Source of the DNA: Ilex aquifolium
Lineage: Eukaryota > Streptophyta > Magnoliopsida > Aquifoliales > Aquifoliaceae
Direction of reading: 5' to 3'
Length of the DNA stretch: 64,000 nucleotides
NCBI GenBank assembly: GCA_951799425.1
Contig: OX637393.1
Location: 24,818,744-24,882,743, forward strand
Below the pieces are notes generated by a model. It searched no databases. It was not told the DNA's origin and saw nothing but the letters and a program-made list of their open reading frames with translations. Shown in pieces: positions 632 to 57,089 of this stretch. Position 1 is the first letter of the stretch, and each line of letters starts with the position of its first letter. A program made the position numbers and the translations under genes.

Positions 632-681
632 GTATATATAGAGGCACTACCGTCCGGACGCTAGTCCCGCCGTCCGGACGG
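632..681 (-). promoter_or_regulatory. Palindrome pair plus TATA box upstream of ORF3
   Basis: Two palindromes (CGTCCGGACG at 651-660 and CCGTCCGGACGG at 670-681) lie just upstream, on the minus strand, of a TATA-like CTATATATA (633-641). ORF3 starts about 215 bp further on. The same arrangement of GTCCGGAC-type palindromes and TATA occurs in the 5' LTR of element B at 15633-15730. I infer a promoter for ORF3; nothing here shows transcription. Confidence 0.5.
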
Positions 682-12540: not shown

Positions 12541-15500
12541 GGTCCCCAAAAATAGAAATTATAAAATTTCCTTATAATTGAATAAAAGTTCAAATAAAGT
12601 TAATTTGAACTTAAACCGGGATCAAATAAATCGGTTCAGGGCGAAAACGGACTCGAACAAGTGGGGGACATGCGGCGCGACGTGAGCCAAGTCTTTAAAA
12701 TTATAAATAGGGCAAAATATCTAAATTTTTGCAGAGATTTTCTTCTGGGTTCTGGGTTCTGGGTTCTAGTTTCTCACGTTGGAGAGGAAGAGAGGAGAAA
12801 AAGTGAGATTTCAAATTTTCTTTCAACGATTCACGGAGTTCCGTCGGTCGGAATTCGTCGAGCCAAGAATCAAAGTTGATCTCCTCGACGAGGGCTACGC
12901 TTATGTACCAAGAACAAAGGATTTCACCGAATATCCAAAAGGAAGATTTTGAGGAAATTAAGAGTTGGGTCGTGGTTGGTGTTCTTGACGGTTCTACCTT
13001 TCGTTTTACGCGTCAAGAGGTAGGGTTCTTCCTACTTTGGTTTTATTTCTACCTATGATGTCCATAGGAAGAGGGTTAGGCGTATAAAACAAATTATTAT
13101 ATGCCTATGGTTATGGAAATGAGGAAATGGGTATTGAAATAGCTTGAATTCGGTGTGAAAAAGTTACTTGTGTAATTTCTTGTAACTTTGTGAAATTTTG
13201 GCATGATATGTGTTTAACATAATTGGTGCATTGAATGTGTTTGATAAAATGCCTTGATTGATTGAAATTGTTATTTTGATATAATTGGAATAACATGTTG
13301 GGCTTTGTTAGTGACATGTGAACATATGTTTTATGATATGTTAGCTTGATGATGAATTATTGAAATTATATGCATATGATAGCAATTTCCATGGAATATG
13401 ATGATATGTGGTTAATGTTGCTCATTTGGCATCTATTGCATATGGAGCATGATAGTGCATCACATTCATGAGCATAAGTCATGAGTGGGGGTGTGTGTAT
13501 GCATGGTTGATCACCTCATTTGGTGGTTGATATGTGGGCTCGGGAAAGTTGGATCGAAGACCCGGCTGAGTTGCATGGATTGCATGGAAAAACTTGTGTC
13601 GGGTATAGCAAGAAGGGCTAGACTCTCCCTCGGGTGCAAAACCCGGCTATTGGTTTATACACTTCCGTCGGTGCAAGTCCAAAAAAGTGTAACGGCATAC
13701 GGAGCCGGTGGTGCGATTCCAAAAAATCTGTTGCCCAACAAAGACACAAGGGTTTTGATTTTCGAAAATACTCTTTTGATGAAAACATCCTACAATGATT
13801 TGGTTTTATAAAACATATGATTTTTGTTTCAAACGATCATTGGATGTATTTCATTAAGGATAAACGTTTTATACAAGTGCATTGCATTGTGTTGCAGGAG
13901 TCGGTGAGGGCTCGGGTTAAGTGCATGGATGAGTATCATCTCATATCATGACATGACATGGTTAAATTCCAATCTTGACTCACATGTTCTTGTTTGGAAT
14001 GAATAAATGTTGTTGATTGTTGCATGTGCATACTTCATATGCATCATGGTTGAGGAGTAGCCTCTGTAGGAGACACTCTATTGAGCGTAGCTCACCCTAT
14101 ACTGGAAAACATTTCAGGTGCGAGGTACACACCTGCGGATGACGCTTATTCGGGGCCCCAAGGATGAAGAAAGGCCGATATGTGGCTTTACTTTGGGTTT
14201 TTGTAAACTAATTATGAAAAATTAGTTTTTGACATGTAAATGTGTACAAAGGATTGTAATAGAACTTATATGTATCATGTTCTATGTGAAAAAAATCATT
14301 AAACATGTGTTGGATGATTGTAGAAAGGTTTGGAATGGATTGGAAATGAAAAACAGGTGAAACAGGGAAAAACTGGGCACAGCGTACAGGTACAGTGTAT
14401 CGGTACACTGTGGTCCAGCAGGTACAGCGTACCGGTACAGCGCAGTCCAACAGGCAAACCGTACCGGTACGCCGTACCGGTAAATTTTCCAAAAATCAAA
14501 AATTTTAAATTGTTTTGCCAAGCTTTTGGGCTATGAGTTCCTTCCCTTCAATGTTATAAATGGACAATAATAGAGTACCAATGGTGGAATATTGGACCTC
14601 GGATGGGTCAATCAATCAAAAACATATAGACTTTATATTTTTTTTTAATCCCGGTAAAGGCGATGTGGTGCCGCAGTGTCGGGTTAACCGGCATCCATGG
14701 GTATTTTCGCAGGTTGATGGGTGATCAACGGACTTATAAATGACCCTTGATTTTTGGGGCGTCACAAGAATTACTCAATAGGTCATCTGTAATATATATA
14801 TACCAGTTAAACATCCTCAGTGCCTTTGGAGGTTAAGCCATACCGGTGGAACACCGTAGATATTTGACTGGCAATATTATTATGTATACCAGTTAAAAGA
14901 TCTTAGTAATCCAGAAGGACAAGTCATTCATAAGGATCACTTAGGTCATTAATCTGATAGTTATATATATAAGTTAAACAACCCTAATAACTCAGAAGGA
15001 AAAGCCATTCATGAGGATCATTTAGGTTTTGTACCATGCATCAGTAGAACATCCTCAGTGCTCTGGTGGAGGTCAAGCCATACCGGTGGAAACACCGTAG
15101 ATATTTAACCGGCAGGTTGATGATGCACTGATGACATAATTCTAGGCACAGCACCAAAATTACGTACATCACTGTATCATGCATGAAGTGTATAATACAT
15201 ATATATATATAAATATAAATAAAACATCAACATTTCCAAAAGTTAACCAATATTATACATATGTTTACCTCTCACTGGAGGATCGAAGTAACTACTCACA
15301 CCCCATTACTATAGACAAGCAAGGAGTGCTGGTAATTTTCATTATAACTGTAAATACAGTACAGACTCGGACACTTCTTTCACAAGGAACAACTGAAATA
15401 CAACCACCTTTACTATCAGTTAAGACAAAAAGATGATGGCAGTACAACTATCCGAATAGAAAGATAAAACAGAAATGTAGAAATACAGAGTTTCGGCTGG

Positions 15501-18381: not shown

Positions 18382-20920
18382 TAACTGTCCAAGTAGATTT
18401 TAGTGTACAGTCGCTTTCTTTTATCATGTACTTTCCAAGTTAATTTGTTTACTTACTTTCATATTTTCGTAGTTTTCTTTCTTTAAATGTGCAGATTACG
18501 GTGTTTTTTTCAAAACTCAGTGCAAGGTGATCTCTAACCCTACTTATTTTTTTAAGTCCATCATTGCATTCTATATATTTTGGTTGCATTGAGAACAATG
18601 CATGAATCAAGTTGGGGGTGAGGTGCACTATTTGTAGGATACACCAAATTTTTATGGAAATTTTTTGTTGATAATACCATTTTGTGGTGAAATTAACCAT
18701 TCACATGCTCTAAAGAGTTTTGTTTAGAATAGTTGAGACATATGTGAAAAAAAAATTAAAATTTTTTGTGAAAAATATCTGAATGTTGACCTATATTCCC
18801 CTTTTCAGAGTGTCATGGGTGTGTGGTTATTTTGATCTTCGCTTTGAATTTCGAATGCATGAGCACATTATAGAAGTTTATCATATGCTTGAGTATCACA
18901 TATGTGTATGCTTTTGAACTCAACCATAAGTGCACCTTGAATGCGTAATTTCGACAATTTACGGATTGGATTCACATTTTAGTGCTTGACATGCATAGTG
19001 GAGATGAAATAAGTACATGTGTGAGCTTTAGTCCCAATCCATGTTGGATGGAACTTACATTTACTCAAAAGAACAATTTTTTAAATTCAAAATATGTTCA
19101 ATAATCTCATTATGCTTGCTTCGATCAGAGTGCATGTGGATAGTTGATTAACTTTGTCTTGAAATGCCAACATGCCTCCCCATGCTTATTTAGAAATGAT
19201 CTTATGCCATCTTTGAAATGCTTTGAGATTTGTCCCTAGTGCGATGATTGAGCCTTAAATGAAAATTTTGTTTCCATGCCGCATAATTGACAAAGCCAGT
19301 GCAAAATGATAAAATTTACCACACCTTCGTTGTTCCAAGAATTGATTGTGATTGATCATAAAAGGAAAGAAAATGTGGAGAAGAAACCCAAAGAGGGATA
19401 AAAGATGCTGAATTCAAAACGTTGAATGGAAAAGACAGAAAAAAAATCCAAGAAAATGAGAAAAAATGGGTGGAAGAAGGAAAAGAAAGAGAAAAAGAAA
19501 AGGAAAATGAGGGAAAAAGAAACAAAGAGTGAAATGAAGGTGATAAGCTGAAAATTCCACAAAAAGAGGAAATTGTTGACAATAAAGGTCATGCCTCAGA
19601 ATAACCCTCTTTATTGTCCTCTTTCCTTCATTTTATTTGCCTAAATATCACCCCAAGGCCTCATTACAACCCTTGAAAGTCCTAAATGATCTAGAGGAAG
19701 CATGGGGAAGGCACACCTTTAAAGAAAAAGAAAAGTTGATTTTGCTATCTAGTGCCCTAACATTCCTTTCATAAAATTATGCCAAGGTTGTTTCATTTTT
19801 ATGCATGTGCTTCATTTTTGGATTATATGCGAGCATACTTCGGTTTGTGCATAAGATTCTATCTCACATATACACATGGAGAGCATGCCAGGATAATCAT
19901 AGTGTGATTCATTGTTGAGAGAAACCCTTGGCGAGTTTTGCATCGAAGCTGAATTTGGACAGCTAAGTGAATGTGAATTCCATTGGGTAAATTCTTAAAT
20001 TACATGTCCACTTCACACCCACACGAGTTTGAAAATGAATGTGTAGGTGCATACTCTATAATAGCATTTAAAGCCATGGTGATGCCCATGTGTACTTTGT
20101 TCGGGTATTTGAACATTGTTATCATTAGCCCTATGCTTGGGAGATTGGGGGAATACTTCTCAAACTTTAGATATTATGAAGGATTAGGAATGCCTTTACC
20201 ATTTAAATATGTGCTTTACATCTTGGGTATTCATTTTGGTAGTTAGATTTGGAAATCCATGTCTTGTGTTTTTGAAAACATCAAAATTTTAAATCATATT
20301 GTAATTTCGTAAATGACTTTGGGCATGATCACTCAATTGAGGTTCACAATTCTAGTTTAGATTTTTTGTGGAGTAGAGGTCGTAAATAGGTTGTTAGAAT
20401 GTGTAGAGAGTGAGTGAAATTGGACTGGAAATGAAAATGGGAGCGCAGGGAATTTTTGGAAAAAAGCTAAAACCTACCGGTAGATGTCTATCAAAACCTA
20501 CCGGTACGTTTTGATCGTTCTGCTAGTAGATTTTGCCCAGAAAACCAGGAAACGAGGGTTTTAAGTCTGAATTTTTGGGAAAACCTTTCACTTTCTCCTC
20601 TAATCTCGATCTCTCAAACCCTCTTCTCTCTCTCAAAGTTCCACTAACCTTCAAAGATTCCTCACCCATCCATCTACTCTCTCAAAGGCACTAAGGTCGA
20701 TTATTACTTAGATTTCATTGCGAATTGCTTGGATTTCTCACAAAACCCTAGTTCTCTCAAAGAATTTCCCCAAATCCATTTCACGTTGGTTTTCCTCAAA
20801 ATCTTGGAATCCATTGCAATAGCTCGTCTAGGTAAGCATGCTCATGATCCCATTGATCTCTTTGAGACAATTTGGACGTGGTTTCTACCCTTTGTGGCCC
20901 TTGGGGCATTTTTTATTTAC
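18382..20920 (+). other. Long spacer and ORF3 leader of element E
   Basis: No coding frame is supported over 2.5 kb. AAGTTGGGGGTGAGG at about 18608 repeats the context of the 3' polypurine tract at 22450. The part 19370-19560 is a strongly purine-biased tract (GAAAAAGAAAAGG type). Two CTACCGGTA palindromes lie at about 20475-20510. They are followed by a CT-rich stretch (20590-20650) like a plant 5' leader, then ORF3 at 20921. Confidence 0.6.
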
Positions 20921-22465: not shown

Positions 22466-24156
22466 TGATGAGCATAGAATATTGCACATCATTTATCTCT
22501 TTGCACCCATTTTATACTTGCTTTTGTGGAGAAAATGGGGGAAATTGCATTTAATATGTCAATTAATGGAGTTTTGTGTGATTGTAGGTAAAGAATAGGT
22601 AATGGCGCTTATTAAGCCTTCCATCAAGTCCTAAAAGACAATGAAGAAAGAGGGGAGGCTTAACGGGTGGCTCGGGATAGCAAGAAATCAAGAAAAAGCC
22701 AAAACAGGTGAAAACATACCTGTAGGTTCTGTTGACGTTCTACCGGTAGGTTTTGTACACTGGAAATCTTCTATTGCTGCCCCTGCCAAAACCTACCGGT
22801 AGGTTTTGCCTACTGGAAAAAACCTATTGGTAGGTATTGTTGACATTCTACCGATAGGTTTTGCCTAGAAACGCCAGAAAGCTACAATCTCAACTCCAAC
22901 TGCTTCGTGGGCCCACCCCTGCTTCTCCAACACATACCATGACATATTCTACATACAAGCATGCTCTTTTACACCTAAGGTATGACTTTGAAAGAAAAAT
23001 CATGGAAGAGGAAGAGAGAGAAAGGGAGTGGTTGGAGAAGCATGGAAAAGGCAAGGCAGGGCTTGTCCTTGCTTGTGCAAGTGTCCAATCCCTTCCCAAT
23101 GATGGAAAGTCAGCTCTCACAGACCTTAGGGGGGTCATGGACGAAAATGAAGACAACTCTTACATTATTATTCAGCTACACACATAGTTTTAGAGAGAGA
23201 AACTCAAGGAAGAAGATGAAGTTTTAGAGAGAGAAAGTTAGGTTTTTGCATTTCCTTCTTCATTTCAGTTGTAGTAAGCTTTAAATCACTTGTAATCTTT
23301 ACTTCTTGCACTTTAACCTCCTTTATTTCAAGTGTATTCAAGTTTAGCTACATATTCTTGTATTCACCATGTCTACATTTGGATTTTTCCTTCCAAGCTT
23401 TACTTTTGGGTATGAAATGAACTTGTCTTTGTAGTTTAACTTCTCTTTCATTAATACAAGTTTTAATCTTCATTTCTTCACCATGTCTCTTTACATTATG
23501 CATTTTTTTTGTTTTGACTCTGGATAGCTAAGTTTTTAGTTAGCTAATCCAAGGGAGATTTCCTTTTGGTTATGCTAAATCAACTCTCCTCCATTCTTCC
23601 TCGTAGTGTAAAGTGTTTGGTTTGACTAGGTTGAGTTCGGGCATGGTTGTCAGCTCTTGATACACTGTAGATTTGTCACGGGGTATGCTTGAGTCTACAC
23701 CTCCACATTAGTCCCTCACTTCCTACGAATCAATCAAGCACCGAGACACCATTGGTAGAATGTTTTGAGTTGATTTGGAATTCCCATTGAAATGATCTCT
23801 TCGGATTAGCCAACCTTATTTTCTTGCAATTTTATCTAAACTCCACTCACCAAAACACAAAACTCATAAGATTTTACACTTTTTATTTCTTTACAAAATC
23901 ACCTTCACCACAATTTGACCTTCCTTTCCTGAGGATACGACCTTTGAATACTCAATTCCAAGTAAAACACGACATTGCAAGTCTCTCTACGCTTGGGGAG
24001 CACTTTTGCACATACACACACACATTTTCATTCACACATATGTTTTCTCCATTCCTAGCATCGAACCTGAGGAAGAGTGACACTCACCTACTCATATAAG
24101 TCACATACACATAGTCTGGGTTCGTGTTCAGAGATTAAGGTGAACTGAACCAAGCA
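22466..24156 (+). mobile_element. 3' LTR of element E (family 2)
   Basis: It is 1691 bp, starts TGATGAGC and ends CCAAGCA. The same ends occur in the solo LTRs at 29541-31431 and 42385-46030. Near its start (22710-22868) are five CTACCGGTAG-type palindromes with spacers TTTTGCCTACTGG. The right flank (gtagc from 24157) is chromovirus gag, so element E inserted into that gene. The matching left flank is outside the window. Confidence 0.88.
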
Positions 24157-24517: not shown

Positions 24518-27500
24518 TGACTTGATCCGAAATGTGTACACCCAAGTGCAGGCGGTCAAGCTGTCTTAATAATCTGGTTTGAGTCCGGAGTCGAATCCAC
24601 AGGGAACTTTTGTTGGTATTTTTGAGATAAGCAGTAGTGAAGACCTATTGATTGTAACCCTTGAGATTTGTTGTGAGGTGTGAGATTTCCTGGACAGAAT
24701 ATAAGATTCTAACAAAATATGAGATAAGCTCTAATAAAAAAAAGTCACTCTTTAGTTCAAGGATCTGGACATGTAGTTAATTATCCGGTTTATTATACTT
24801 GTGCTTGATAACTCAATTAACTCCCGTGTCAACAGCAAGTTAATCGGAAGATAAAGATGGACTGTGAGAATTAAGAACATGATTCCGATGTCTTTCTAGA
24901 AGTTTACAAGAATTGTCTGTGCCGAGACTTAACCCGTCTACAAACAAGCAAGTGTTTCTACAAGACATCCAACCATGACATTAATATTCCATTCTTTAAG
25001 TGAAGCACAATAATGGGGAGGATTGAAGGGTAGTCATGAGGATCTAGCCGGGGTACTTGCCTTGAACCGATGAGTCTTTCTATGCAAGAGGCATCCGTGT
25101 CATAGAAAGAGCCCACGGTTTTACAAAGTACCTTAGTTTTGCTAGCTGCAATCAATCATCCAATAAGCAAGAAGAAATAAACATTAAGCATAAGAATAGT
25201 GCACAAATATAATTCCCGGATAACTTATACATGCCCTTCTCCTCTTACTAAAGAGTGAATGAGAAACTACTCACTCTTCATGGCTTTGGTAAAGCTAGAA
25301 AAGTGGGTGATGCTTATCCCTCCAAGTAAAGGACTTACAAGATGAAATAACAAAAAATAAGGAGCCAATCTTTAACAAAGAATGAGTGAATCACGTTCCA
25401 CCCTTCACGGATTTGGTAAAGCTCTAGAAAAGTGGAAGAGTTTCACTCCTCTAAGAAAGAAAGAAGCTCAAGAAATGGAAGTGAAGTACATAAACAATAA
25501 AAGTAGAAGAAAGCTAGTCACATTTGGAGGGTGGCTTCCTCAACCAAAGAATGGAGGGTTGCTTCCTAAACCAAATGATGAACTAACTCCCTTCTATGCA
25601 TGTAAGTGAAAGCATAAGCATAAAACTACTTTTATAACAAGCAAATAGATGTTGGACTATGCACAAAATTATTTTTATAACAAGCAAAGAGATGTTGGAT
25701 TAAAGCCAAACTAATCTCTAAAAACAACTACTTCATACAAGGAAATGTAAGCTAAATCTACAATGTGAGTGGGAGTCTAAGCCTCCATCAACCTCTCTAC
25801 CTCCCCCCTTTCAGCTCTCCAATAATGGGAGTATTTATAGGCAAAAGGAGGAGACAAGAGGGGGTGAAGGAATAGTGTATGCCGCCCAAGTCCAAGTGAA
25901 AAACCAACTACTCTACTGTCAGTCTGTGGAGAACGTTCGAACGTGAGTTGGCGTTCGAACGTTGTTTCTGTTTTTGCTTTATGGTCGTTCGAACGTTTTC
26001 TGCCGTTCGAACGTTTCTTCTGTCTTTGCACTATGGGCGTTCGAACGCCAGATGTGGTCTGACCTTCTCACTCAAGTGGCTTGTTGTAACGCCCCAAAAC
26101 ACACCCTGGACGGCATTACTATCCAAGACCATTCACAGCATGAGAGCGACTAAATAATTTCCATAAATAAAGAAATTTCATTCATCATATATCATGTCCA
26201 TAGCATTATCCCAAAATAATAAGCCAAATCATGGCAATTACATCCCAAAAGAATTAAACGTAACTTAGCAGCGGAATAACAAAAGATTATATTTTACATG
26301 ATCCCAAAATAACCCTTCAATCTAATACAAAGAAGGACCGTCGAGATATCCCCCTCCGGATCCCTCTACTCGTCTTCTAACCGATCCTCCTCTACAGCAT
26401 CACCTGAAAAATGTGTTGGTTTGTAGGGGGTGAGCACTAAGCTCTGTAGGAAAATCCTCCCAAACTCAAACAAGGTTTAGAAAACAAGTAAAACCAGGAC
26501 ATTTAAATAGATCTCAAGTTTAAGGAACAACAGTAATTGAATGAAAAGTGAAACCAAGTATAATTGACAACCAATTTCCAAAACATAATTCATTCCACCA
26601 TACACTATTTCCACAAGTTCTCGTGGCATCCCATACTACCCAAAATTCTTGTGGAAATCGTATCTGGTACAATGAACAATACCCATATATAATTTTATAA
26701 TCCATTTCCACCATAAACTATTTCTAACAAGTTCTCGTGGCATCCCATACTACCCAAAATTCTTGTAGAAATCGTCTATGGTAGAATGACCAATAACCCA
26801 CACTGTATTCGTATCACAAATATGTAGTAAGATCCCGCATGGTCACAATCGGAGGTCTCATGTCCCACGTGTACGCATACCCCGTGGGCGATAGCGGGTT
26901 AGTCCCCACAAGGCCCTAACCCCACTATGAGTGGTAGGAAAAGTTCCGACCCCTACGGAAGGCGTCTACCCCCTCCATGATACCCGGTCGATAGCAGCCC
27001 ATGTTCACATCGAACCACCACACATGAGATACAATACCCCCGCTTTTCAAATATATTCAACCATTTCATCACCATTTTCTCCAATTTTACCTTTTCGGAA
27101 TGAGCATCCTTACAAGGAACCTCTCACCCTCAAGGTTTCATTCCACAATTTACCAACAATTCCATAATCCCCAATTTTTTCATCCCACTTCACATGTAAC
27201 ATTTTAATAAAACAATTTAAGAAAAACACATGAGATCATCGAAATATCATTTTATTACTCAACACAAAACACTAAATTTCTTTTTAAAAACAAGACAAAA
27301 GAATATCCAAGGAGAATCCACACTTCATGAAGAAATAGAGTTTTGAAGTGAGGACATGTGAATGTTGGGTTAGGATATCAAGGGCCAATGGATATAAAGC
27401 TTGAAATCAAGAACAATTAAACACAAGGTCTTGAAATTAAGAATAAAGGAATAACAAGGTTGGACATCAAGGACAAAAGAACAATCAAGCCTTGACATCC

Positions 27501-29121
27501 ATAGCAACAAATATCAAGCTTGGGAATCCAAAAGTGAAGGAACAATCAAGTTTTGTCATTTATAACAACAAACATTAAGATTAGACCTCATGAACAACGG
27601 GGAAATCAAGAGGAACCCCATTTCCTTGCAATTAGAGTTTCGAAGGCACACCAAGAGATTTATGGCTATCAAGCCCTAATTTCGTTCATGATATGGTAAG
27701 GGATTACAAGAGCAACAAGAAATAGAGATTCCATAACATACATATAGGATTTGGGAGCAAAACATACATAAATATAAACCCTAACCTCAATGTAAGAGAA
27801 AAGGAGGAAACCCCTACCTCAACCAAGTATCTCTAGCAACCCAAGCTTTAAAGACTCACTTTTCCCCTCTTTCTTGCTCCCTTGCTACTTTCTCTTTTGG
27901 TTCTAAGAGGTTTGAGTGAGGGTGACGTGAAATTATAGAAGAGAGAATGGGTGGAGAAGTGGGTTCTTGAAAAACTAGGGTTTGATTTTATTCAAGGTGT
28001 AAATCTCTCTTGATTTTCGTGTTTTTCTCTTCCTCTCTTCCTCTCTAATGGTTTCTAGGGTTTCAAGTGGTGTAATGAGGTTCAAGGAGGCGGCATTAAG
28101 CATTTATAGTGGAAGAAATGGAGAAAGAACCGCAGTCGGATCGGGCTGGGCTTTATCGGGCGTACCGGTACGCGTACCGGTACGGTTTAGCTACTGGAGT
28201 TCGGCGTACCGGTACGGTTTGACTGCCAGATTTTTGTTTCAACTTCCAATGAAGTTTTGACCCATTTAGAGGTCGAATTGGAAAATTTTCATGAGACACA
28301 CTTTTGTAGCCCTAAATGTCTACTATCTACTGTCCAAATTTCAGATCAATTAGAGTTACAGATAAAAAGTTATGGCCAAAATACTAGAAGGTGTCCCAAC
28401 TCCTTTTTACCCAAATTTTCTCCAAGTGTGTTTTCACTCCGGAATTCTTCCTAACTTCCAATACCCTCATATTACCTCTCCCAAGGTTGTTCGACCTTCC
28501 GGATTCAATGGAGAACTTATTTTGACCTAAAAATATTTAGACACTTCCATAATCCCTCTTCTCAAGTTTACACACCTTCGAAACTCAAACTTCCCCAATC
28601 CATTTGTATCTCTAGTTTTTGCTTTTATTCATACCGTCACTACACATATCCATATTTTTACAACAATTATTTACTATATATCTATATACCTATATAAAAT
28701 AAAATGCGGGGTGTTACACTTGTGGTCATCTGTGAAGTTCATTTTCTCACTCTATGCAGTAGTATGGTCTTCAATCAACTCGAGTGCACGTTCGAACGTG
28801 AGTTGGCGTTCTAACGTGACACTCAAGTGCCTCAGAGCCTCAGAGTCTTCTTTCCTAGCTGCAACACGTCTTCTCTCAATAGTCAAGTCTGCTATAGTTC
28901 AATGTGGACGTTCGAACGTGAGTTGGCGTTCGAACGTTCTGGCTGTGCTCCAAGCTTCTCCAATTTTGTACCCTAATGTGCTGGTGTTACATTCAAGTGT
29001 GATACTTGTTGTTCTTGAGTCCTTGTTCAGTTTAGGGCCTGAAATGACATCACTTAAATTCCATCAAAGTACAATTAGTCTTAAAACGGCATAGTAAAAT
29101 GTTAATTTTAAGTGCTAATCA
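24518..29121 (-). mobile_element. Solo LTR, family 3 (Athila-like), split by another solo LTR
   Basis: On the minus strand it starts TGATTAGCAC and ends GATCAAGTCA, and it is flanked by CACAT on both sides (24513-24517, 29122-29126). Without the insert it is about 1.97 kb. Its 3' end resembles family 1 (gtacacccaagtgcaggcgg against tatacacccaagtataagtgg). GTTCGAAC palindromes lie at 25930-26046 and 28790-28940, upstream of CTATAAATAC at about 25836-25845 on the same strand. Confidence 0.9.
26085..28718 (-). mobile_element. Solo LTR inside the family 3 LTR
   Basis: It is 2634 bp, with ends TGTAACGCCCC and GGGTGTTACA and the perfect duplication CTTGT (26080-26084, 28719-28723). It is the reverse orientation of the family seen at 54903-57089. 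On the minus strand GTACCGGTAC palindromes (28155-28215) precede CTATAAATG (about 28102-28110) by about 50 bp. It holds a 114 bp tandem repeat (26614 and 26728). No coding region. Confidence 0.92.
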
Positions 29122-29213: not shown

Positions 29214-32200
29214 TGTGATGCCCCTAAAATCGGGGGTCCTTTGTCAACCCGTTGATCACCCATCAACCCGCGAAAATCCCCATGAATATCGCATAACCCG
29301 ACACTACGGCATAACATTCCCTTTATCGGGATCACAACAACACAAAGTTTGGGCAGAGTCTCCCTTGTACTGGGCACTCCCAAACGCATAACCTGTATAC
29401 CATTCAATCACATGACCCATCCAAGGTCTAATATACAACAATTTATACTCCATTATTGTCAATTTACTTCATTTGAATTAAAGGACCCAAAGCCCGAAAA
29501 CATGGTAAAGCATTCTTAAAATTTGAAGTTTTAGGAAAACTGATGAGCGTGTAATATTGCATATTAAACAGTCTCATTACATGCATTTTAACTCAACTTT
29601 GCATTTAATTACTTAGAGTTAGTCAAAGTTATGAATAATGTGGAAATTTTGATGTTGCAGGTAATCATAGGGTAAATGATGGCTTTCGGAACCCTGCAAT
29701 TAAGTGTGGATGAGTGGTGAAGAGATGGACACATTACATGAGGATCGGGAGGCTTGGAAGGTGAATAAATCAAGAAAAATTCATTTGGAAGAAAACCTTT
29801 TGAAAGGTTTGCATCGACCTTCCGGAAGGTTTAGCCCACTGGAATTGGTATTAGTACCTCTGTTTTTTCCCTTTTTTACCATGATTGACTTCGAATCTGG
29901 AGAAGTTCAAAACATAAAAGTTGTAGATCTGGATGTCTTCTATACTGTGTCAAAATTTCAGCTCAATCGAATGGTTGGATCAAAAGTTATGACAATTTTA
30001 CAAAAAATGGTCCTTAGTTGGCACCTTCCGGAAGACCTTCCAGAAGGTTTAGCCTACTGGAAACAACCTTCCGGAAGGTTTGCTTCGACCTTCGGGAAGG
30101 TTTTGCCCAGAAACGCCAAAAAGCCTACAACTCATGCTCCACTTACTTGGGGGTCCCACCTATGATTATCCCACTTGTCCCCTGACATATTCTACATACA
30201 TACATGCCTCCTACACCCCAAAGTTAGCCTTGGAAGATGAAGGATAGGAAAGGGGGAGAGAGAAGAATGGAGGCATGGTGGGTGCAGGCTAGGCTTGTCC
30301 TAGCCTGTCCAAAGCCAATCAACTCACCTCCCATTGATGGGAGGCCTGCATACAGGCTATGGGGAGCGTCATTGACGAAAATGCAAGAGCTCTACACCAT
30401 ATATTCAGCTTCACACAAGCTTTAGAGAGGGGGAGGCTACCTAAGCTTAGGAGTAGTTTTTAGAGAGATAAGTTCCAATGGAGAAGGTGAAGTTCTAGAG
30501 AGAGAAATTTATATTTTTGCATTTTCTTCTCCATTTCAGTTGTAGTAAGCTTTAAATCACTTGTAATCTTTACTTCTTGCACTTCAATCTCATTTATTGA
30601 AAGTATATTTCATGTTTAGCTATGCATTCAAGATTCTACCATTGTTGTATGAGTTTTTTCACTTCAACATTTTAAAATGGGTAGTAAATGCACTTCTTCA
30701 TAGTTTAACTTTTCTTGCATTGATTGAAGTTCCAATCTTCATTTCTTCATTATGTCTCTTTACATTATGCATGTCTTCCCTTTTATTATGAGTAGCTAAG
30801 CTTTAAGTTGGCTAATCCAAGGGAGAACTCCTCTTGGGTATGCTAAATTAACTCTTTTCCATTCCTCCTCGTAGTGTACGACGGTTTGGTTTGACTAGGT
30901 TGAGTGTGGACGTGGTTATGAGTTCTTGATACACCGTAGACTTGTCACAGGATTGCTTGAATCCTCACCTCCATTTTAGTCCCGCGCTTCCTACGAATCA
31001 ATCGAACGTTTACGCACCATTGGAAGAATGTATTGAGTTGAGTTGGCATTCCCATTGGAATGACCTCTTTGGATTAGTCAACACTTGTTTCCATTTCATT
31101 TTCATCAAGAACACAATCACCAAAACTTAAACTCAAAATATTTTACACATTTCCATTTTTTGCAAAATCACTTTCACCACAACTTGACCTTTCCTTCCCT
31201 GAGGAGACGACCTTGGAATACCAATTCCAAGTAAAACACGACACTCGAAAGTCTCTCTGCGCTTGGGGAGCACTTTTGTATACACACACACACATTTTGT
31301 TCATTCACACCCATTTTCCCATTTCTTGCATCGAACCCTAGTGAGAGTGACACTCACCCACACACATAAGCCATATACACATTGAGGGTTCATGTTCGGA
31401 AATTAGGGACAACGACGGAATAAGTCAAGCAAAAACCTACCGGTAGAAGATGACCATGATCTATTGGTAGAAAAACCTTCTGGAAAAGTTCTATCGCAAA
31501 ACTTGAAGTTCTACCAGTAGGTTTAGCCTACAAGAAAAGTTCTACCGGTAGAAGAACTCATCGTTCTACCAGTAGGTATTTCCAGTTTTCCTACGATTCT
31601 TTTCTTTTTCAATTTCAATCCATTCTAACCTTGTACAACGCTAACCCAAACTCATATAACATCTATGTTCAACAAAAATACAGTTCATATGAGTTCTCTT
31701 TACAATCCTTCACAATATTACATGTCCAAAACTAATTAACATAATAATTTTTACAAAACATGTTTTAGAAGCCACATCTCGGCTTTTCTTCAACAATGAG
31801 GACTCGATTGTGAGCCGTCCACCGGCGCATGTCCCACACTTGAAATGTTATCCACATAAAGGGTGAGCCACGTTCAATAGAGTATCTCCTAAAGAGGCTA
31901 CTCCCCAACCTAGATGCATATGAAATGTTCACATGCAACATTCAACAAGCAACCACTATTTCAATCAAGAATATGCAATTCAATTTTGGAAATCACCATG
32001 CCATGTCATGAAATGATATGAGACTCACTCATGCATTTCAAATCGAGCCTTCACCGGCTCCCTCAACACATGCAAATGTCATGCGTGTGAACTCTGGGCA
32101 TTCCAAGCCCCCTGCCACTGATGTTACACATCCAATGACCATTCAATTCTCGGGTCTTTCTTAGGGTGAGTATTTATGAACTTCCACCAACGGTTACCCA

Positions 32201-40345: not shown

Positions 40346-40519
40346 ATAATTTTCTCAATTTCAATTTCAAGTTGTATTTTCAATTCCAATTTCAATTTCG
40401 TGTTGTATTTTCAATTCCAATTTCAATTTGAAGTTGTAATTTCAATTTTCATAAATGATAGCAACATAATAAATAATGACTACAAATTAAAAAATAATAG
40501 CAACATAATAAATAATGAC

Positions 40520-41502: not shown

Positions 41503-43369
41503 GATCTTGTAACGCCCCTAAAACTGGGGGTCATTTATAAGTCTGTTGATCAACCATCAACCCACGGAAATACCCGTGGATGCCGGTTAACCCAACACCG
41601 CAGCATCACATCCCCTTTACCGGGATTTAAAAAAAATATAAGGTATATATGTTTTTGATTGATTGACCCATTCGAGGTCCAATATACCACCATTGGTACT
41701 CTATTATTGTCAATTTATAACATTGGAAGGAAGGAATACATAGCCCAAAAGCTTGGCAAAACAGTTTGAAATTTTCTGATTTTTGGAAAGCGTACCGGTA
41801 CGTTGTGCCTACTGGACCACTCCGTACCAGTACGCTGTACCTACTGGACCACACCGTACCGGTACGCCGTGCCCAGTTTTGCCTGTTTCACCTGTTTTTC
41901 ATTTCCAATCCATTCCAACACATATCATGTCCATCCAACTCATGTATAATGGAGATTTTCATATTACACAAGGTCCATACCAACTCTATTACATATATTT
42001 ACATGAATTCACATACCAAAACTAAGTTTTCATAATAATTTTACAAAAAACTCAAAATAAAGCCACATTCCAGCTTTCTTATTCTTCATCCACGGGGCTC
42101 GAACTAGGATCCATCCACCGGCGTATATCCCGCACCCGAAATATTTTTCCCGTATAGGGTGAGCCACGCTCAATAGAGTATCTCCTAAAAAGGTTACTCC
42201 TCAACCTAGATGCATATGAAATGTTCACATGCCAAAAATCAAAAACTCATAACATTCCAATTTAGAATATGCATTCCATGTTGGAATCTACCATGTCATG
42301 CCATGAAATGAAATGATACTCACTCACGCACATCATCCCGAGCTCTTCCCAGCTCCTCAACACATGCAAGTGCCAATGTGTATGTGATTAGCACAAAACT
42401 TTGTATATTTTTATGTGCTAAATCATGTTATTTTAATTGTTGTTGGAGATTAAATGATGGGAGTTAGGTTAATTGAGTTCTTAACAATAATATTTGGTGT
42501 TTGCAGTTAACAGATGCTAAAAGAGGCTTCTTAAGACCTTCTCAAATCAATTGAGACAAATGAGGACAAAAATGTAGCTTGGGGATAGCTCAGGAGAGGA
42601 GGAAATTAGAAAATCAAAAACTCAGCCAAACCGTACCGGTACGCGTACCGGTACGCGTACCGGTACGCTGAGGCTACTGGAGCAAATCTCAGAAAACCAA
42701 GAAGTCAGTCAAACCGTACCGGTACGCGTACCGGTATGCTAAAGTTACTGGAGTTAATCGTACCGGTACGCAGAAGCCACTGGAGTTCGCCGTACCGGTA
42801 CGCGTACCTGTACGATTTGCCTGATATGCCCAACTGTTCTGCAACTCATGTCTGCTGCTTCGAGGGTCCCACCAACAGACCCCCCATGCTCCCCTGACAT
42901 GCCCACAACACTATTCATCCCTATTGATTAACCCTAAATTGTGTGTAAATTAAAATGATAAGTACTCACTTTTGTAAAAATAAAACAAATAAATATTATG
43001 AATTATGTTTTGGGTGTGAATTAAAGTTTTTAATAAATTATGTTAAACATTGCAGGGTCAAATGCAGAAATACTGGAAAGTACAAGACAATTTTGCAAAG
43101 CTGGAAATGACGAAGGACTAAAGTGCAATAAAGAAACTTGGACCAATGGGAGCATGACACTTGGACCAATAAGAAAAAGACATGTGTACCAATGGAAGCA
43201 AGACAAGTGGCAGCCCAAGACGGTGACACCTAGCATCACTGCACAACCTTCTGGAAGGTTGCGAAGTGGCAGCTCCGGACGGCGACACCTAACCCTACTG
43301 CAAGACATAACCTTCCTAAAGGGTTGATGACCTTCCTAAAGCCCCCCCCCTACCGTGCACCTCCCCCTC

Positions 43370-43378
43370 TATAAATAG
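43370..43378 (+). promoter_or_regulatory. TATA box of family 1 LTR
   Basis: TATAAATAG after a C-rich stretch is followed at about 30 bp by a TTACA/TTTCC leader region. It is the best-preserved LTR core promoter in the window. Confidence 0.65.
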
Positions 43379-43924
43379 GGGCTGAATTCTTACATTTCCT
43401 TTACACACCAACACAAAAGAAAAAAGCCTTCATACCTTACCTCCATTCTCTAGCCTTTCCACACCAAGTCTTCCTTTGTTTTTTTTTCTACATACAGTTA
43501 CTTCCAACATACAAAATCAGCCCCTTATTCATACAAGACCAGCCGGCCTCCAAGCTCCAAAGGAAGAACACCTTAGAGAAAGATAGAGAGAAAAGAGAAA
43601 GGAATAGCCGGTGTGTGACACCCTTTCCATATTTCTACATTTCTGTTGTAATCTTTCTATTGGGACAGTTGAACTGCCGCCACTTTTGTGTCTTGAATGA
43701 TAATAAAAGTGGTTGTGTTTCAAGTGTTCTTTGTGAAAGAAGTTCTATTTTAATTTCTGTTGTAATGAATACTACCCGCACTTCTTGCTTTTCTATAGTA
43801 ATGGAGTTTGAGTAGTCGTTTATACCCTTCAACTAGGGTGAACATATGTATAATATTGCTTAAGTTCTGGAAATGCTGATGTTTTATTTATATGTTTATA
43901 TATATATATATATATTATATAACT

Positions 43925-52578: not shown

Positions 52579-54902
52579 AGCTGTGACGCCCCTAAAACCG
52601 GGGGTCATTTATAAGTCTGTTGATCAACCATCAACCCGCGGAAATACCCGTGGATGCCGGTTAACCCGACACCGCGGCATCACATTCCCTTTACTGGGAT
52701 TTAAAAAAAATATAAGGTGTATATGTTTTTGATTGATTGACCCATCCGAGGTCCAATACACCACCATTGGTACTCTATTATTATCCATTTATAACATTGG
52801 AAGGAAGGAATACATAGCCCAAAACTTGGCAAAACAGTTTGAAATTTTCTAATTTTTGGAAAGCGTACCGGTACGCTGTGCTTACTGGACCACTCCGTAC
52901 CGGTACGTCGTGCCCAGTTTTGCCTGTTTCACCTATTTTTCATTTCCAACACATATCATTTCCATCCAACTCATGTATAATGGAGATGTTCATATTACAC
53001 AAGGTCCATACCAACTCTATTACATACATTTATATGAATTCACATACCAAAACTAAGTTTTCATAATAATTTTACAAAAAACTCAAAATAAAGCCACATT
53101 CCGGCTTTCTTATTCTTCATCCACGGGGCTCGAACTGGGATCCATCCACCGGCGTATATCCCGCACCCGAAATATTTTTCCCGTATAGGGTGAGCCACGC
53201 TCAATAGAGTATCTCCTAAAGAGGTTACTTCTCAACCTAGATGCATATGAAATGTTCACATGCCAAAAATCAACAACTCATAACATTCCAATTTAGAATA
53301 TGCATTCCATGTTGGAATCTACCATGTCATGCCATGAAATGAGATGAGACTCACTCACGCACATCATCCCGAGCTCTTCCCAGCTCCTCAACACATGCAA
53401 GTGTCAATGTGTATGAATCCGTCATCTATGATCACATCAGATGACATTTACCAATCTAGGGTCTTTGTAGGGGTGGATGTTCATGGACTCACACCAAAGG
53501 TCACCCAACCTACACGAAATTTACGGGCTTCCACCGAAGGTTCCGCGTACACCTACACACTTCATAGGCCGAGCCAAAGGAGTGCGTATCCTAATCACCG
53601 GGCCTTGCACCCAAGGGATCTTCTAGCCCTTCTTGCTAACCTCAACCTTATTAACCATGCAAACCGTGAGACTCGGCCAGGTCTTCGACCCAGCTTACTC
53701 GAGCCCACCCGTCATCCACCAAGTATGGTGTTGACAACAACTGTGCACACACACCCACAAAATGTGATGTTTCCGTGCACATGCAATATGATGCCTCATT
53801 GCAACAGTGACACAATGTTCAATATGCTATGAATGACATATGAACTATTTCAACGCATTTCACATGTCTCATGGCAAATTATATCATAAGCATATAATTC
53901 CCATAATTTTTCACAATGTCAATATATCAATATGTGCATATCAACATTTTATCTAGGAACAACACCCAAGCATGTTATCACATAATCAAGTAATAACACA
54001 TTTAATTCTCAAGGCATAATGTAAACACATAAAATGCCCACAATTCACATAACTCAAGATCAAATTAGGTAAATCTCACATACCCAATTCTAAAAATCAC
54101 AACTAGCAATTTCTACTTATTTTTCACACTCATTTCACTAATTTTCATCACAATAGGTAAATGATATATAATTCTATCAACCTACCCATTTCACAAAAAT
54201 ATTCTAGGCTTGGAATAAACCTAAATAGAAGGGAACCCTACCTCTTGAAGCGTAAAACGACGTTGAGAAGCTTCAAGAACCCGATACAAGCTAGAATCTT
54301 CACTTCCCCAAAATCCCGTCCTTGGAATCTCGCCCAAACCTGACCTCCTTGGTATGATTTTGTAGCCCTTGGCGAAGAGAACTAATTTTGTTCTTGGCCC
54401 GAGTGGATTTGAGCGACGGGGTGGCGTAGATCGTAGATAGAAGGTGAATTTTCTCTCTTTTTTTCTTTCCTTTCCCTCTCTTCTCTTCTCACGTTAGAAC
54501 CGGCTGAAAAAATGGGGAGAAAATCATATTTTCTCCCCTATAAATACCCTTTAATTGCTTGGTTCATAATGCGCCACACAGCCCTCTTTTCGCGGGTCCG
54601 TTTTCGCCCTGAAACGATTAAATTTCGCTCTGATTCAAGTTCAAAATATTTTTATTTTAACTTGCCTTCATTTATTTCCCAAACTTTAAAACTTTATAAA
54701 AAAATTCGTTTTTGGATCACCCGAGGCCCGACCGCTTCATAAAACCCGAAAAATCCGACTATCTCGGAATTCAACCAAATTTTACAGGGTAACTAGATTT
54801 CGCGAGATGAATCCAACGGTGAGGTCCGTTTCGTCATCCGAGCTCTAGAAAAATTCAGATTTGTAACCCGTACCGTAGTGACAAATTACCGTTTTGCCCT
54901 TT

Positions 54903-57089
54903 TGTAACACCCCGCATTTTCGTTTATATATGTATATAGATGTATATTAAATAATGGTTGTAAAAAATGTGGAGATGTGTAAGGATGTAAGAATAAATTA
55001 TATAGATTGTAATAGTAGGAGAACGCTAGAGATAAATATGGATTGGGAAGTTGGAGTTTCCAAGACGATTAAACTTGGAAAGGGTGACTAGATGAATTTC
55101 TAAATATTTTTAGGACAAAATAAGGTGTCCATTGAATCCGGAAGGTCGAACAGCCTTGGGAGAGGTAATATGAGGTGTATTGGAAGCTAGGAAGTATTCC
55201 GGAGTGAAAACACACTTAGAGAAAATTTGGGTAAAAAAGAGTTGGGACACCTTCTAGTATTTTGGTCATAACTTTTTACCCTTATATCCAATTGATCTGA
55301 AATTTTTACAGTAGATAGTAGACATCTAGGGCTACAAAAGTGTATCTCATGAAAATTTTCCAATTCGACCTCTAAATGGGTCAAAATCGCGCTGGAAGTT
55401 GGAACAAAAATCTGGCAGTCCAACCGTACCGGTACGCCGAACTCCAGTAGCCAAACCGTACCGGTACGCGTACCGGTACGCCCGAAGCTTGGCACCGAAA
55501 AAGTCAGGATTTTGGTGTTTTAAAACACCCTTTTAAGCCTCATTTGACCCATTCTTCCATCCCACTCTCACCCCCAAACATCTTAGAGCCCTAAGAAAAG
55601 AATAAAGAAGGAGAAAACACAAGATCAAAAGGGGAAAACAAAGGATTTAAGAGTGATTCAAGATCAAACCCTAGATCTTCAAGAACAAAAAAAAAGGTAG
55701 GGGTTTTCTCTCACTCTCTTACATTGAGGCTAGGGTATTTATATATGTATGTTTTGGCTATCAATGGTATTTATATGCTATGGAATCATCCTCTCTTAGG
55801 CTTTTTGGTAAAGATTACATGTTTTGAACAATGTTAGGGTTAAATACCCATGAAATCTCTTTTTATGTTTTAAAACCCTAGGTTGTGGAGAGTGATGTAT
55901 TTCTTCTTAAATGCTTTCTCTATTATGAACTTTGAAAAATCGTAGTTGTTTGTGTTGGGTAGCAAAATAATGTTATTGTGATCTCATGTATTTTCTTGGT
56001 TAGCCATTATAAAATGTCACATGCTTAATTTGGGGGTTTTGGATAAATGATTGTAATTTGAGATAAATATTGGAATTGTATGCTTGGTTGGGTTGTTTGT
56101 GATGCACATGAGTGAGAGGTTCCTTGTAAGGATGCTCACCCCTTCCCAAGAGGTTCCTTGTAAGGATGCTTGGGAAACAATGTAGTGATTGGTGGGAGGT
56201 TTCTTGTAAGAATGCTCATCCATTCTCAAGAGGTTCCTTGCAAGGATGCTTGAGAATCAATGAATGGGGGCGGAGGTTGCTCTTAAGTATGCCACCTACC
56301 GGAAGAATGGGGGTGGACGTTGCTCTTAAGTATGCCACCTACCGAAAGAATGGGGGTGGAGGTTGCCTTAAAGTATGCCACCTACCGAAAGAACGGGTTC
56401 TCAAGAGGTTCCTTTTAAGGATGCTTGAGAATCAGAGATGATCTAAAGGGGGGTGGAGGTTACCTTAAAGTATGCCACCTACCTAAAGAATTGTTTGGGA
56501 TTGTTTATGGCCATTAATGATTATCTTTATGTGGTGCTTGTTTATTCCTTAAGTAATGTTTATACATAAACTTGAGATCCTTTTTAAATGTCACTGCTTT
56601 CGTTCAAATTATGTATCTATGTTTTGTTAAAAATGAGACCGACCGTTGTAAATGCTTTTCTAAACCTTGTATGGGTTTGAGAGAATTGTTCTACAGAGCT
56701 TTGTGCTCACCCCCTACCGCTAACATTTTTCAGACTAACCGCTTGAGGAGGACGTAAGGGTCGAGGAGCCCGCTACTTGGGAGACTCCACTTGACGGGAG
56801 TGTGGATCCCGAGGTGGACGCATAGAGCGACCTCCTTTCCTTTTGTACTAAACTAGGACATTCTTCTGGAACATTGTGTAGTCTAGCTTCTTTTGTTTAT
56901 TCCGCTGTGCTACTTTAATTCATTTGGAGATGTAAATGTCATAGCTTGGCTTATTCATTTGGGATGATATTGTAAATTTTATGGATGATGAATGGAGAAT
57001 TTTCTCATTGATGAAATTATATTAGTGCTCTCATGTTGTGAATGGTCTTAGAATGTAATGTCGTCCAGGGTGTGTTTTGGGGCGTTACA
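54903..57089 (+). mobile_element. Solo LTR inside the 5' LTR of F
   Basis: It is 2187 bp, with ends TGTAACACCCCGC and GGGGCGTTACA and the perfect duplication CCTTT (54898-54902, 57090-57094). It is of the same family as 26085-28718 (shared block around 55200-55420 and 28215-28440, opposite strands). GTACCGGTAC palindromes lie at 55424-55482. Confidence 0.94.
56100..56490 (+). repeat. Minisatellite arrays in the solo LTR
   Basis: There are two interleaved units. One is about 44 bp with GGTTGCTCTTAAGTATGCCACCTACC (shown in pieces at 56265, 56309, 56352 and again at 56455). The other has GAGGTTCCTTGTAAGGATGCT (about 56122, 56150, 56199, 56230, 56405). Both are GT-rich on this strand. Confidence 0.85.

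What the first reader, a model, noticed from the sequence alone, without database searches (positions are those of the whole stretch)
42632..42815. Shared palindrome-spacer module in LTRs of unrelated families
Short palindromes of 10-14 bp with a CCGG or TCGA centre, here three head-to-tail CGTACCGGTACG and more, occur 2-6 times per LTR. In the TACCGGTA and TTCCGGAA types they are joined by a spacer close to GCCTACTGGA. I see this module in Athila-like family 2 (22710-22868, 29812-30105, 42632-42815), in Tekay-like LTRs (12056-12127, 14384-14482, 41796-41873, 52863-52912, 31437-31590) and in the 26085/54903 family (28155-28215, 55424-55482). Other palindromes without that spacer lie in family 1 and family 3 LTRs. 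These families differ in almost everything else. Such sharing suggests module exchange by recombination or strong convergent selection, for example for a common host factor or a structural element.
Basis: partly seen in the sequence, partly recalled or inferred. Interest (0 to 1): 0.85.

Follow-up and report, generated by a model that had tools for sequence, protein, structure and literature searches.

The report
Swappable palindrome cassette in plant retrotransposons
Unrelated families of plant jumping genes carry, at set places in their control regions, interchangeable arrays of a short mirror-symmetric DNA word followed at an exact distance by a second short word, which looks like a control switch that the families trade with each other.

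Summary
The window holds 32 CCGG-centred palindromes of at least 10 bp against 1.6 expected. The "spacer" is phase-locked: CCGGNA-N9-YACTGGA occurs 11 times in the window against 0.02 expected, and 18,166 times in the window's 800-Mb genome against 47 for the reversed pattern. In the window three LTR groups carry it: Athila-like, Tekay, and a Tekay-like solo-LTR family (F26). Arrays sit in lineage-specific slots with homologous flanks, but fillers differ between copies and the same filler classes recur across lineages. Clearest case, 31433-31592: Tekay flanks, Athila-like module. Spacer orientation relative to transcription varies. Palindromicity is kept while letters change. Sense-RNA pairing is not favoured: 11 G-U and 11 A-C departures. 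One Athila-like element also has a copy before its envelope-position ORFs, as Sireviruses do. I read it as a cis-regulatory DNA cassette, similar in kind to Sirevirus repeated-motif boxes, exchanged between Ty3/gypsy lineages and probably docking a dimeric DNA-binding protein. Exchange is well supported; protein and function are inferred. Genome-wide adjacent-phase and non-palindrome controls could not be run.

The parts
22707..22872 (+). Athila-like LTR 'Ath22' module: palindrome units at 22715, 22739, 22792, 22823, 22847 (class CTACCGGTAG); half-sites ACTGGA at 22759, 22812; about 242-407 bp after the LTR start at ~22464
29818..30110 (+). Athila-like LTR insertion 'Ath29' (29541-31431, TSD AAAAC) module: palindrome units (class CCTTCCGGAAGG) at 29818, 30024, 30036, 30067, 30089; half-sites at 29838, 30056
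42628..42820 (+). Athila-like LTR 'Ath42' (42385-46030 with nested insertions, TSD GTATG) module: eight CGTACCGGTACG-type units, three half-sites; 23 CpG in 193 bp, flanks 0 in 237 and 1 in 140
20466..20551 (+). Internal copy of the Athila-like LTR module between pol and the abutting ORFs 20648-21319 and 21320-22135 (PF20167 in the second), the envelope position; palindrome units at 20473, 20497, 20519
12050..12135 (+). Tekay LTR 'Tek12' module: three CGTACCGGTACG at 32-bp spacing, one of two spacers with the half-site, antisense
14382..14486 (+). Tekay LTR 'Tek14' module, spacers antisense, half-sites with one or two changes (TGTTGGA, TGCTGGA)
41787..41878 (-). Tekay 3' LTR 'Tek41' module (element on - strand), spacers antisense
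52860..52917 (-). Tekay 5' LTR 'Tek52' module, LTR position ~1996-2039 of 2322; PBS at 52578
31433..31592 (-). Tekay LTR 'Tek31' module: flanks Tekay, module most similar to Ath22 (chimera)
28156..28220 (-). F26a LTR insertion (26085-28718, TSD CTTGT) module, ~52 bp upstream of the TATA box at 28109 (-)
55425..55485 (+). F26b LTR insertion (54903-57089, TSD CCTTT) module
28255..28396 (+). ~140-bp block shared by the F26 LTRs (also 55245-55386, - strand) and Ath29 (29873-30013), same order and orientation relative to the module
25933..26049 (-). Palindrome array CGTTCGAACG (spacings 18/34) without the YACTGGA spacer, upstream of TATA 25840 (-); similar palindromes at 28787-28936 beyond the F26a insertion
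650..681 (-). CCGTCCGGACGG / CGTCCGGACG pair just upstream (- strand) of TATATATA; no YACTGGA spacer

Best explanation
The feature is a cis-regulatory DNA cassette of LTR retrotransposons. Its unit is a 12-14 bp palindrome with core TWCCGGWA, followed at a fixed 9-nt gap (counted from the A of CCGGNA) by a one-sided half-site YACTGGA. Units are repeated at 31-47 bp, some palindromes also head-to-tail at 12 bp. The array sits in a slot that is characteristic of each LTR lineage: from about LTR position 240 in the Athila-like LTRs, 490-560 in F26, 1940-2070 in Tekay. The content of the slot is replaced or inverted by recombination between families. [Shown in a limited sample: the grammar, the slots, the filler incongruence, the varying orientation.] Each palindrome is at once a direct and an inverted repeat, so it can serve as a handle for exchange in either orientation. 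[Inferred.] The array most likely docks a dimeric sequence-specific DNA-binding protein, probably a host transcription factor, that drives or tunes transcription from the LTR and from the envelope-position ORFs. [Inferred from palindromicity, phase, varying orientation, promoter proximity in F26 and in Athila, and analogy with Sirevirus boxes.]
For: Phase: 11 motif matches in the window against 0.02 expected; genome 18,166 against 47 for the reversed pattern; among 258 palindrome sides (window plus 32 fetched loci, 12 of those chosen by the motif), ACTGGA at offset 18 in 43, next offset 6; in 20 random 10-kb stretches offset 18 is also the mode, 4 hits of 52 sides, three of them in one LTR. 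A spacer profile from Athila recognises both F26 spacers and 6 of 7 Tekay spacers at p<=0.002 by shuffling. Palindromicity: of 41 motif sites chosen without asking for symmetry (window plus 31 fetched loci, 11 of those chosen by the motif; 24 distinct), 40 have a complementary first flanking pair and 41 at least 3 of 4 complementary pairs; 23 distinct units keep 87.7% pairing against 75.8% in shuffles, with 16 two-sided changes against 7.0, 0 of 500 shuffles reaching either. Exchange: Tek31 module scores 31 and 23 with Ath22 and Ath29 but 10-14 with four other Tekay modules, while its flank scores 140-149 with Tekay and 9-12 with Athila. Slots: 13 arrays in 11 fetched loci placed; the Tekay slot holds four further fillers besides CGTACCGGTACG, the F26 slot two. 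Orientation: sense in L069, antisense in L100-L104 and L106; L097 has one each way. Location: of 26 core palindromes in the random 200 kb, 22 belong to arrays placed in Tekay, F26 or Athila LTRs. A copy lies on the envelope side.
Against: No binding, expression or methylation data. In Tekay the module lies ~1600 bp downstream of the likely TATA box (54543, 33239 on -), so it is not a simple upstream enhancer there; a TATA-like GTTATAAATGG (GTTATAAATTG in Tek41) follows it by ~70-80 bp in four copies, but nothing shows it is used. The two Tekay arrays in L082, and L079 and L091, have no exact half-site at the phase. Slot borders are loose in some copies: in L069 and L101 the right flank resumes ~150-200 bp further into the reference, in L100 ~40 bp, and the right flank of the F26 copy in L082 did not match. 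Two of the five covariation measures do not exceed shuffles (pairs with two-sided change 4 against 3.2, 189 of 500; further pair types 9 against 7.5, 80 of 500). The envelope-side copy scores higher with Ath22 in reverse (28) than forward (25), null maximum 20. CpG enrichment is absent in Ath22 and Ath29. Masked spacer similarity is not significant for several cross-lineage pairs, e.g. Tek12-F26a p=0.40, Ath42-Tek31 p=0.59, Tek31-F26a p=0.45. The genome-wide controls at adjacent phases and with mixed cores were not obtained.
Confidence: 0.57

Rival explanations
1. An RNA element: the palindromes form hairpins or kissing loops in the transcript, for dimerisation, packaging or 3'-end formation, with the spacer as a conserved loop.
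For: All ten module stretches folded had lower energy than the mean of dinucleotide shuffles, z -3.3 to -5.5; adjacent palindromes can pair and leave the spacer in the loop; in Tekay the module is in the likely transcribed part.
Against: Any palindrome array folds well, so the z-scores are not independent evidence. Departures from symmetry are 11 G-U and 11 A-C in the sense strand, no bias towards RNA-tolerated pairs. Orientation varies, and the spacer would then be its complement in RNA. In F26 the module is upstream of the likely TATA box, so it would be absent from the 5' end of the RNA.
Confidence: 0.12
2. A target array for a sequence-specific anti-silencing protein, as VANC proteins have in VANDAL transposons, possibly encoded by one lineage and parasitised by others.
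For: VANC targets are short motifs in tandem repeats of non-coding regions that evolve together and differ between related elements (PMC5735166, passages; PMC10398659, passages). CGTACCGGTACG arrays keep CpG, most clearly Ath42 (o/e 1.64 against 0.00 and 0.16 in flanks).
Against: No candidate protein was identified; Tekay and F26 share the motif with Athila, which fits a common host factor at least as well; CpG retention is not seen in Ath22/Ath29.
Confidence: 0.12
3. A neutral minisatellite: palindromes provoke replication or repair slippage, arrays expand and spread by gene conversion, without function.
For: Array copy number varies (2 units in Tek52, to 12 in L069) and the slot is hypervariable between better conserved flanks; two of four nested LTR insertions checked lie beside palindrome arrays.
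Against: The half-site stays in phase in arrays of different period and with different letters in between; symmetric changes are maintained; slots are characteristic of the lineage.
Confidence: 0.14
4. Independent convergence: each lineage evolved sites for the same host factor, without exchange.
For: The core and phase are what is best conserved; unrelated Sireviruses of distant plants were reported to share nearly identical boxes despite low homology (PMC2829016 section 9). Several cross-lineage spacer pairs show no significant similarity once palindromes are masked.
Against: With palindromes masked, Ath22-Tek31, Ath22-Tek41, Ath22-Tek52, Ath29-Tek31, Ath29-F26a, Ath42-Tek52 and Ath42-F26a spacers match with 0 of 300 shuffles as good; 33 identical bases, 24 of them palindrome, join Ath42 and F26b in inverted orientation; Ath29 and F26 share an extra 140-bp block.
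Confidence: 0.15

Closest known systems
Sirevirus (Ty1/copia) repeated-motif (RM) boxes, Bousios et al. 2010, PMC2829016 (passages and section 9 read)
   Same: Multi-copy palindromic boxes with dyad symmetry in the LTR, extra copies in front of the env gene, CpG islands, closeness to a TATA box; one member with a TCGA centre (Tnd-1).
   Different: Reported as Sirevirus-specific and absent from the classic Ty1/copia elements compared. Here the carriers are Ty3/gypsy (Tekay with a weak chromodomain match, Athila-like), the core is TWCCGGWA, a second half-site is phase-locked to it, and fillers are exchanged between lineages.
VANC target motifs of VANDAL transposons (Hosaka et al. 2017, PMC5735166; passages read)
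   Same: Short motifs in tandem repeats in non-coding parts of transposons that evolve in concert.
   Different: VANC motifs described there are bound by a protein encoded by the transposons themselves; here several lineages share one grammar and no encoded partner is known.
Maize palindrome CACCGGACNNNGTCCGGTG shared by Copia and Helitron (PMC10760457; passages read)
   Same: A palindrome of a cis-region found in different transposon superfamilies.
   Different: The passages I read do not describe slots with exchanged fillers or a phase-locked half-site.
Retroviral and retrotransposon U3 tandem-repeat enhancers (recalled; general remarks in passages of PMC2829016 and PMC10760457)
   Same: Repeated, sometimes palindromic, cis-regulatory sites in LTRs.
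   Different: Palindromic letters change symmetrically and the array is exchanged between unrelated lineages in either orientation.

Membership tests
Sirevirus RM boxes | Carried by Ty1/copia Sireviruses | tested here: not met
   Tekay element: gag, RVP_2, RT, RNase H, Tf2-1-like SH3 and a Chromo match (E 0.0009, below Pfam's cut-off), iMet-type PBS (tRNA name recalled); Athila-like element: RT, RNase H and PF20167 in the envelope position. Lineage names rest partly on recall; no RT tree was built.
Sirevirus RM boxes | Palindromic units with dyad symmetry in many copies | tested here: met
   2-8 units per LTR in the window, 12 in L069 and 10 in L102. Sireviruses have at least eight per element, so low-copy LTRs here fall short.
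Sirevirus RM boxes | CGG...CCG core signature | tested here: inconclusive
   The core here is CCGG, in which CCG and CGG overlap in the other order; the TCGA centre resembles Tnd-1 only.
Sirevirus RM boxes | Boxes form CpG islands | tested here: inconclusive
   o/e 1.16-2.25 in seven of nine arrays tested, 0.51 and 0.60 in Ath22 and Ath29; no CpG-island caller was run.
[quoted passage not shown]
   Ath22: 242-407 bp after the LTR start (met). F26: 502-557 bp, ~52 bp upstream of TATA. Tekay: ~1996, far downstream of the likely TATA (not met).
Sirevirus RM boxes | Extra copies in front of the env gene | tested here: met
   20466-20551, one element examined; similar to the Ath22 (25 forward, 28 reverse, null maximum 20) and Ath29 (23, null maximum 17) LTR modules. 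That the ORFs are env-like is inferred from position and PF20167.
VANC-type anti-silencing target | Bound by an element-encoded protein that removes methylation | not testable with these tools
   No binding or methylation data; no candidate protein.
RNA structural element | Sense-strand pairing tolerates G-U better than A-C | tested here: not met
   11 G-U against 11 A-C among 45 units, plus 7 transversion-type departures.

The most novel reading that the evidence does not exclude
In this plant genome a bipartite regulatory code (TWCCGGWA palindrome, nine bases, YACTGGA half-site) is a common good of unrelated LTR retrotransposon lineages: plug-in arrays occupy lineage-specific slots, are swapped and inverted by recombination at the palindromes, and thereby re-equip whole families with a new promoter specificity or escape from silencing in one step, at some 18,000 sites in the genome.
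Probability: 0.4. Interest if true: 0.86.

Novelty: new variant of a known kind. Interest (0 to 1): 0.7.

Why it matters
Palindromic boxes in LTRs were described as a Sirevirus feature. Here a like anatomy, including a copy in front of the envelope-position ORFs, appears in Ty3/gypsy lineages with a precise two-part grammar and with cassettes exchanged between families. That makes two old questions testable: how LTR families acquire new regulation, and what selects palindromes in LTRs. With about 18,000 motif matches it could also spread one host factor's binding sites through the genome.

Tried and rejected
Coding repeat: the 32-bp period is not a multiple of three, and a peptide query made from module translations found nothing (138 candidates, none at E<=10). 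A 153-aa ORF across Ath29 found one 89-aa relative (of two candidates) on a 513-bp unnamed contig, which shows only that a related LTR exists elsewhere.

Sense-RNA structure: rejected as main reading because of equal G-U and A-C departures.

External relatives: viral contigs gave 12 and 56 matches. The 12 of the first scan were read and show no module-like spacer; the 56 of the second were not inspected and are judged chance by a rough estimate of mine. Prokaryote genome contigs gave 0 matches. A literature search with the sequences found 6 papers, judged unrelated from the listing. No paper in the listings was recognised as describing this in Athila or Tekay; this is limited to the held open-licence library, to the rows listed, and mostly to titles, abstract starts and term counts. 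Bousios et al. 2016 is not held and is known only through citing papers.

A first alignment with a lenient gap cost gave long meaningless matches and was redone. One motif scan had a wrong gap and returned 0; corrected. The Tek31 entry in the spacer matrix was cut out of register and is not used.

Known host factors: CGTACCGGTACG contains the GTAC core of SBP proteins and TTCCGGAA fits a heat-shock element, but neither covers all classes; both are recalled, not tested.

Full report
What was claimed and whether it is there. All ten ranges hold them. The window has 32 perfect CCGG-centred palindromes of 10 bp or more against 1.6 expected (60 Markov sequences, maximum 7) and 11 TCGA-centred against 3.0, maximum 7. 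Many are copies within families, so what matters is the grammar and its distribution.

The grammar. In 15 spacers of the window the letters TGGA stand at positions 11-14 after the 12-bp palindrome (13, two more, Ath29b and Tek41b); in the arrays the next palindrome then follows after 5-6 bases, giving a period of 31 or 32. The second Tek12 spacer and the Tek31 spacer lack it. CCGGNA-N9-YACTGGA is found 11 times in the window, 0.02 expected; ACTGGA alone is near expectation. The window's own genome (800 Mb, 103 contigs) became searchable once: 8,839 + 9,327 matches against 20 + 27 for the same pattern read backwards. The first hundred listed places include sites with other letters in the gap and with repeats at 43 and 47 bp, the phase there being set by the pattern. 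In 20 random 10-kb stretches, not chosen by the motif, 26 core palindromes were found and offset 18 is the commonest distance to ACTGGA: four cases of 52 sides, three of them in one LTR of L082 whose array has 43- and 32-bp steps. In the window plus 32 fetched loci together, 12 of the loci chosen by the motif, 43 of 258 palindrome sides have ACTGGA at offset 18 and no other offset exceeds 6.

Which elements. The minus-strand element around 41.5-54.9 kb has gag, protease, RT, RNase H, a Tf2-1-like SH3 and a chromodomain match below Pfam's cut-off (E 0.0009), an initiator-Met type primer site at 52578 and a polypurine tract beside 47556: Tekay. The plus-strand element ending in the LTR at ~22464 has RT and RNase H, then two abutting ORFs (20648-21319, 21320-22135; PF20167 in the second) in the envelope position, then a G-rich tract and the LTR: Athila-like. 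Both lineage names rest partly on recall. Ath29 (29541-31431), Ath42 (42385-46030), F26a (26085-28718) and F26b (54903-57089) are LTR insertions with exact target-site duplications AAAAC, GTATG, CTTGT and CCTTT. I read F26a as sense on the minus strand: TATA box at 28109, GA-rich leader and a GAGGTAGGG splice-like site as in Tekay.

Slots and fillers. Tekay flanks agree with each other and Ath22 and Ath29 flanks with each other, but the modules do not follow. The Tek31 module scores 31 and 23 with Ath22 and Ath29 and 10-14 with Tek12, Tek14, Tek41, Tek52; its flank scores 140-149 with those Tekay copies and 9-12 with Athila flanks. The Ath42 module scores 40 and 38 with F26a and F26b, 26-36 with four Tekay modules, and 12-16 with Ath29 and Ath22. 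With palindromes masked, spacers still match across lineages in seven pairs with 0 of 300 shuffles as good (Ath22 with Tek31, Tek41, Tek52; Ath29 with Tek31, F26a; Ath42 with Tek52, F26a); other pairs are weaker or not significant (Tek12-F26a p=0.40, Ath42-Tek31 p=0.59, Tek31-F26a p=0.45, Ath42-Tek14 p=0.13, Ath29-Tek14 p=0.10; within Tekay, Tek52-Tek31 p=0.83). Thirteen arrays in eleven fetched genome loci were then placed against the reference LTRs. The Tekay slot (reference about 1940-2069) holds CGTACCGGTACG (L079, L103), AGTACCGGTACT/GGTACCGGTACT (L102), CTACCGGTAG (L101, L104), GCTACCGGTAGC (two LTRs in L082) and CCTTCCGGAAGG (L069). The F26 slot holds CGTACCGGTACG (L106) or ACTACCGGTAGT (L100, L082). 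The Athila slot holds CCTACCGGTAGG (L085, L091); L097 and L098, which match the first ~680 bp of the Ath29 LTR, hold the TTCCGGAA class. Borders are not equally tight: the right flank resumes only at reference 2200 in L069, at Tek31 reference 2401 in L101, at F26 reference 600 in L100, and was not matched for the F26 copy in L082. So the same filler classes recur in two or three lineages. The L082 Tekay arrays, L079 and L091 have no exact half-site at the phase, which is evidence that the half-site is not indispensable.

Orientation. Relative to transcription the spacer is sense in the Athila-like LTRs and antisense in Tek12, Tek41, Tek52, F26a and F26b (with the strands above). Among the fetched loci it is sense in L069 (Tekay; four spacers) and L085 (Athila), antisense in L100-L104, L106 and the F26 copy of L082. 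In L097, an Ath29 relative, one spacer points each way. A palindrome is a direct and an inverted repeat at once, so exchange at palindromes can invert what lies between; this mechanism is inferred.

Selection for symmetry. The 23 distinct units keep 87.7% standard pairs against 75.8% in shuffles and show 16 two-sided changes against 7.0, with 0 of 500 shuffles reaching either, and sliding the partner destroys it; the number of pairs with a two-sided change (4 against 3.2) and of further pair types (9 against 7.5) do not exceed shuffles. Since units were partly collected for symmetry, a second test used sites chosen only by CCGG and the half-site: 40 of 41 have complementary letters beside CCGG and all 41 have at least 3 of 4 flanking pairs complementary (window and 31 fetched loci, 24 distinct locus-sequence combinations). 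Departures from symmetry in the sense strand are 11 G-U, 11 A-C and 7 others among 45 units, so pairing in sense RNA is not what is kept.

Position and likely working. In F26a the array ends ~52 bp upstream of the TATA box. In a third type of array (CGTTCGAACG, no half-site) it ends ~93 bp upstream of TATA at 25840 on the minus strand. In Ath22 and Ath29 it lies ~290 bp upstream of a similar TATA-like, GA-rich region (my reading). In Tekay it lies ~1,600 bp downstream of the likely TATA box and ~70-80 bp upstream of GTTATAAATGG, GTTATAAATTG in Tek41; rice Retrosat2 also has a ~2-kb R region (PMC3485330, passages), so the Tekay array may lie within the transcript. The element with Ath22 has a further array at 20466-20551 in front of the envelope-position ORFs, similar to the LTR modules (Ath22 25 forward and 28 reverse, null maximum 20; Ath29 23, null maximum 17; 20 shuffles). 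Most arrays are CpG-rich (o/e 1.16-2.25 in seven of nine); Ath42 stands out against CpG-poor flanks (1.64; 0.00 and 0.16); Ath22 and Ath29 do not (0.51, 0.60). I take the array to be a DNA element bound by a dimeric protein, with the half-site as part of the same or a partner site. TACCGG in the palindrome and YACTGG in the half-site are alike, so one protein could touch both; this is inference.

Comparison with what is known. Sirevirus RM boxes (PMC2829016, passages and section 9 read) are palindromic, start 200-400 bp after the polypurine tract, form CpG islands near TATA, and recur in front of env. The Ath22 array matches this anatomy in position and in the extra copy, though not in CpG, and its carrier is Ty3/gypsy; that paper compared Ty1/copia elements. 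Other papers report small-RNA hotspots at such palindromes in maize and a palindrome shared by Copia and Helitron (PMC5311732 and PMC10760457, passages). What I did not find in the searches listed under Tried and rejected is the phase-locked half-site, lineage-specific slots with exchanged fillers, or the presence in Athila and Tekay.

Limits.

Noticed in passing
29873-30013; 28255-28396; 55245-55386: A ~140-bp block beside the module is shared by an Athila-like LTR and the F26 LTRs (local scores 35 and 45 against null maxima 21 and 17); a profile of the three finds no other place in the window below E 0.4; same order and orientation relative to the module.
   Followed up: partly
31432-31436 and 26080-26085: Ath29 inserted within a few bases of the Tek31 palindrome array, and F26a inserted between two groups of CGTTCGAACG palindromes: two of the four nested LTR insertions checked lie beside palindrome arrays.
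   Followed up: partly
25933-26049 and 28787-28936: CGTTCGAACG palindrome array with 18/34-bp spacings, interrupted by F26a, CpG o/e 2.25 in the first part, upstream of a TATA box on the minus strand.
   Followed up: partly
650-681: Two TCCGGA-centred palindromes directly upstream (minus strand) of TATATATA, in an unassigned element.
   Followed up: no
34826-35371: A 273-bp tandem duplication, 98.5% identical, inside a Tekay-like internal region.
   Followed up: no
39177-40346: Plant_tran transposase matches in two adjacent plus-strand ORFs, DDE_Tnp_4 in the second (Harbinger-type by recall).
   Followed up: no
L082:4222-4391 and L082:8496-8623: Two Tekay-type LTRs with GCTACCGGTAGC arrays at 42-43 bp that lack the YACTGGA half-site at the usual phase.
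   Followed up: partly
L105:378-668: A sequence with ten TTCCGGAA cores and spacers in both orientations that matches none of the reference LTRs well.
   Followed up: no
43237-43260: An imperfect CAACCTTCTGGAAGGTTG palindrome ~115 bp upstream of CTATAAATAGGGG (43369) in sequence inside the Ath42 insertion.
   Followed up: no
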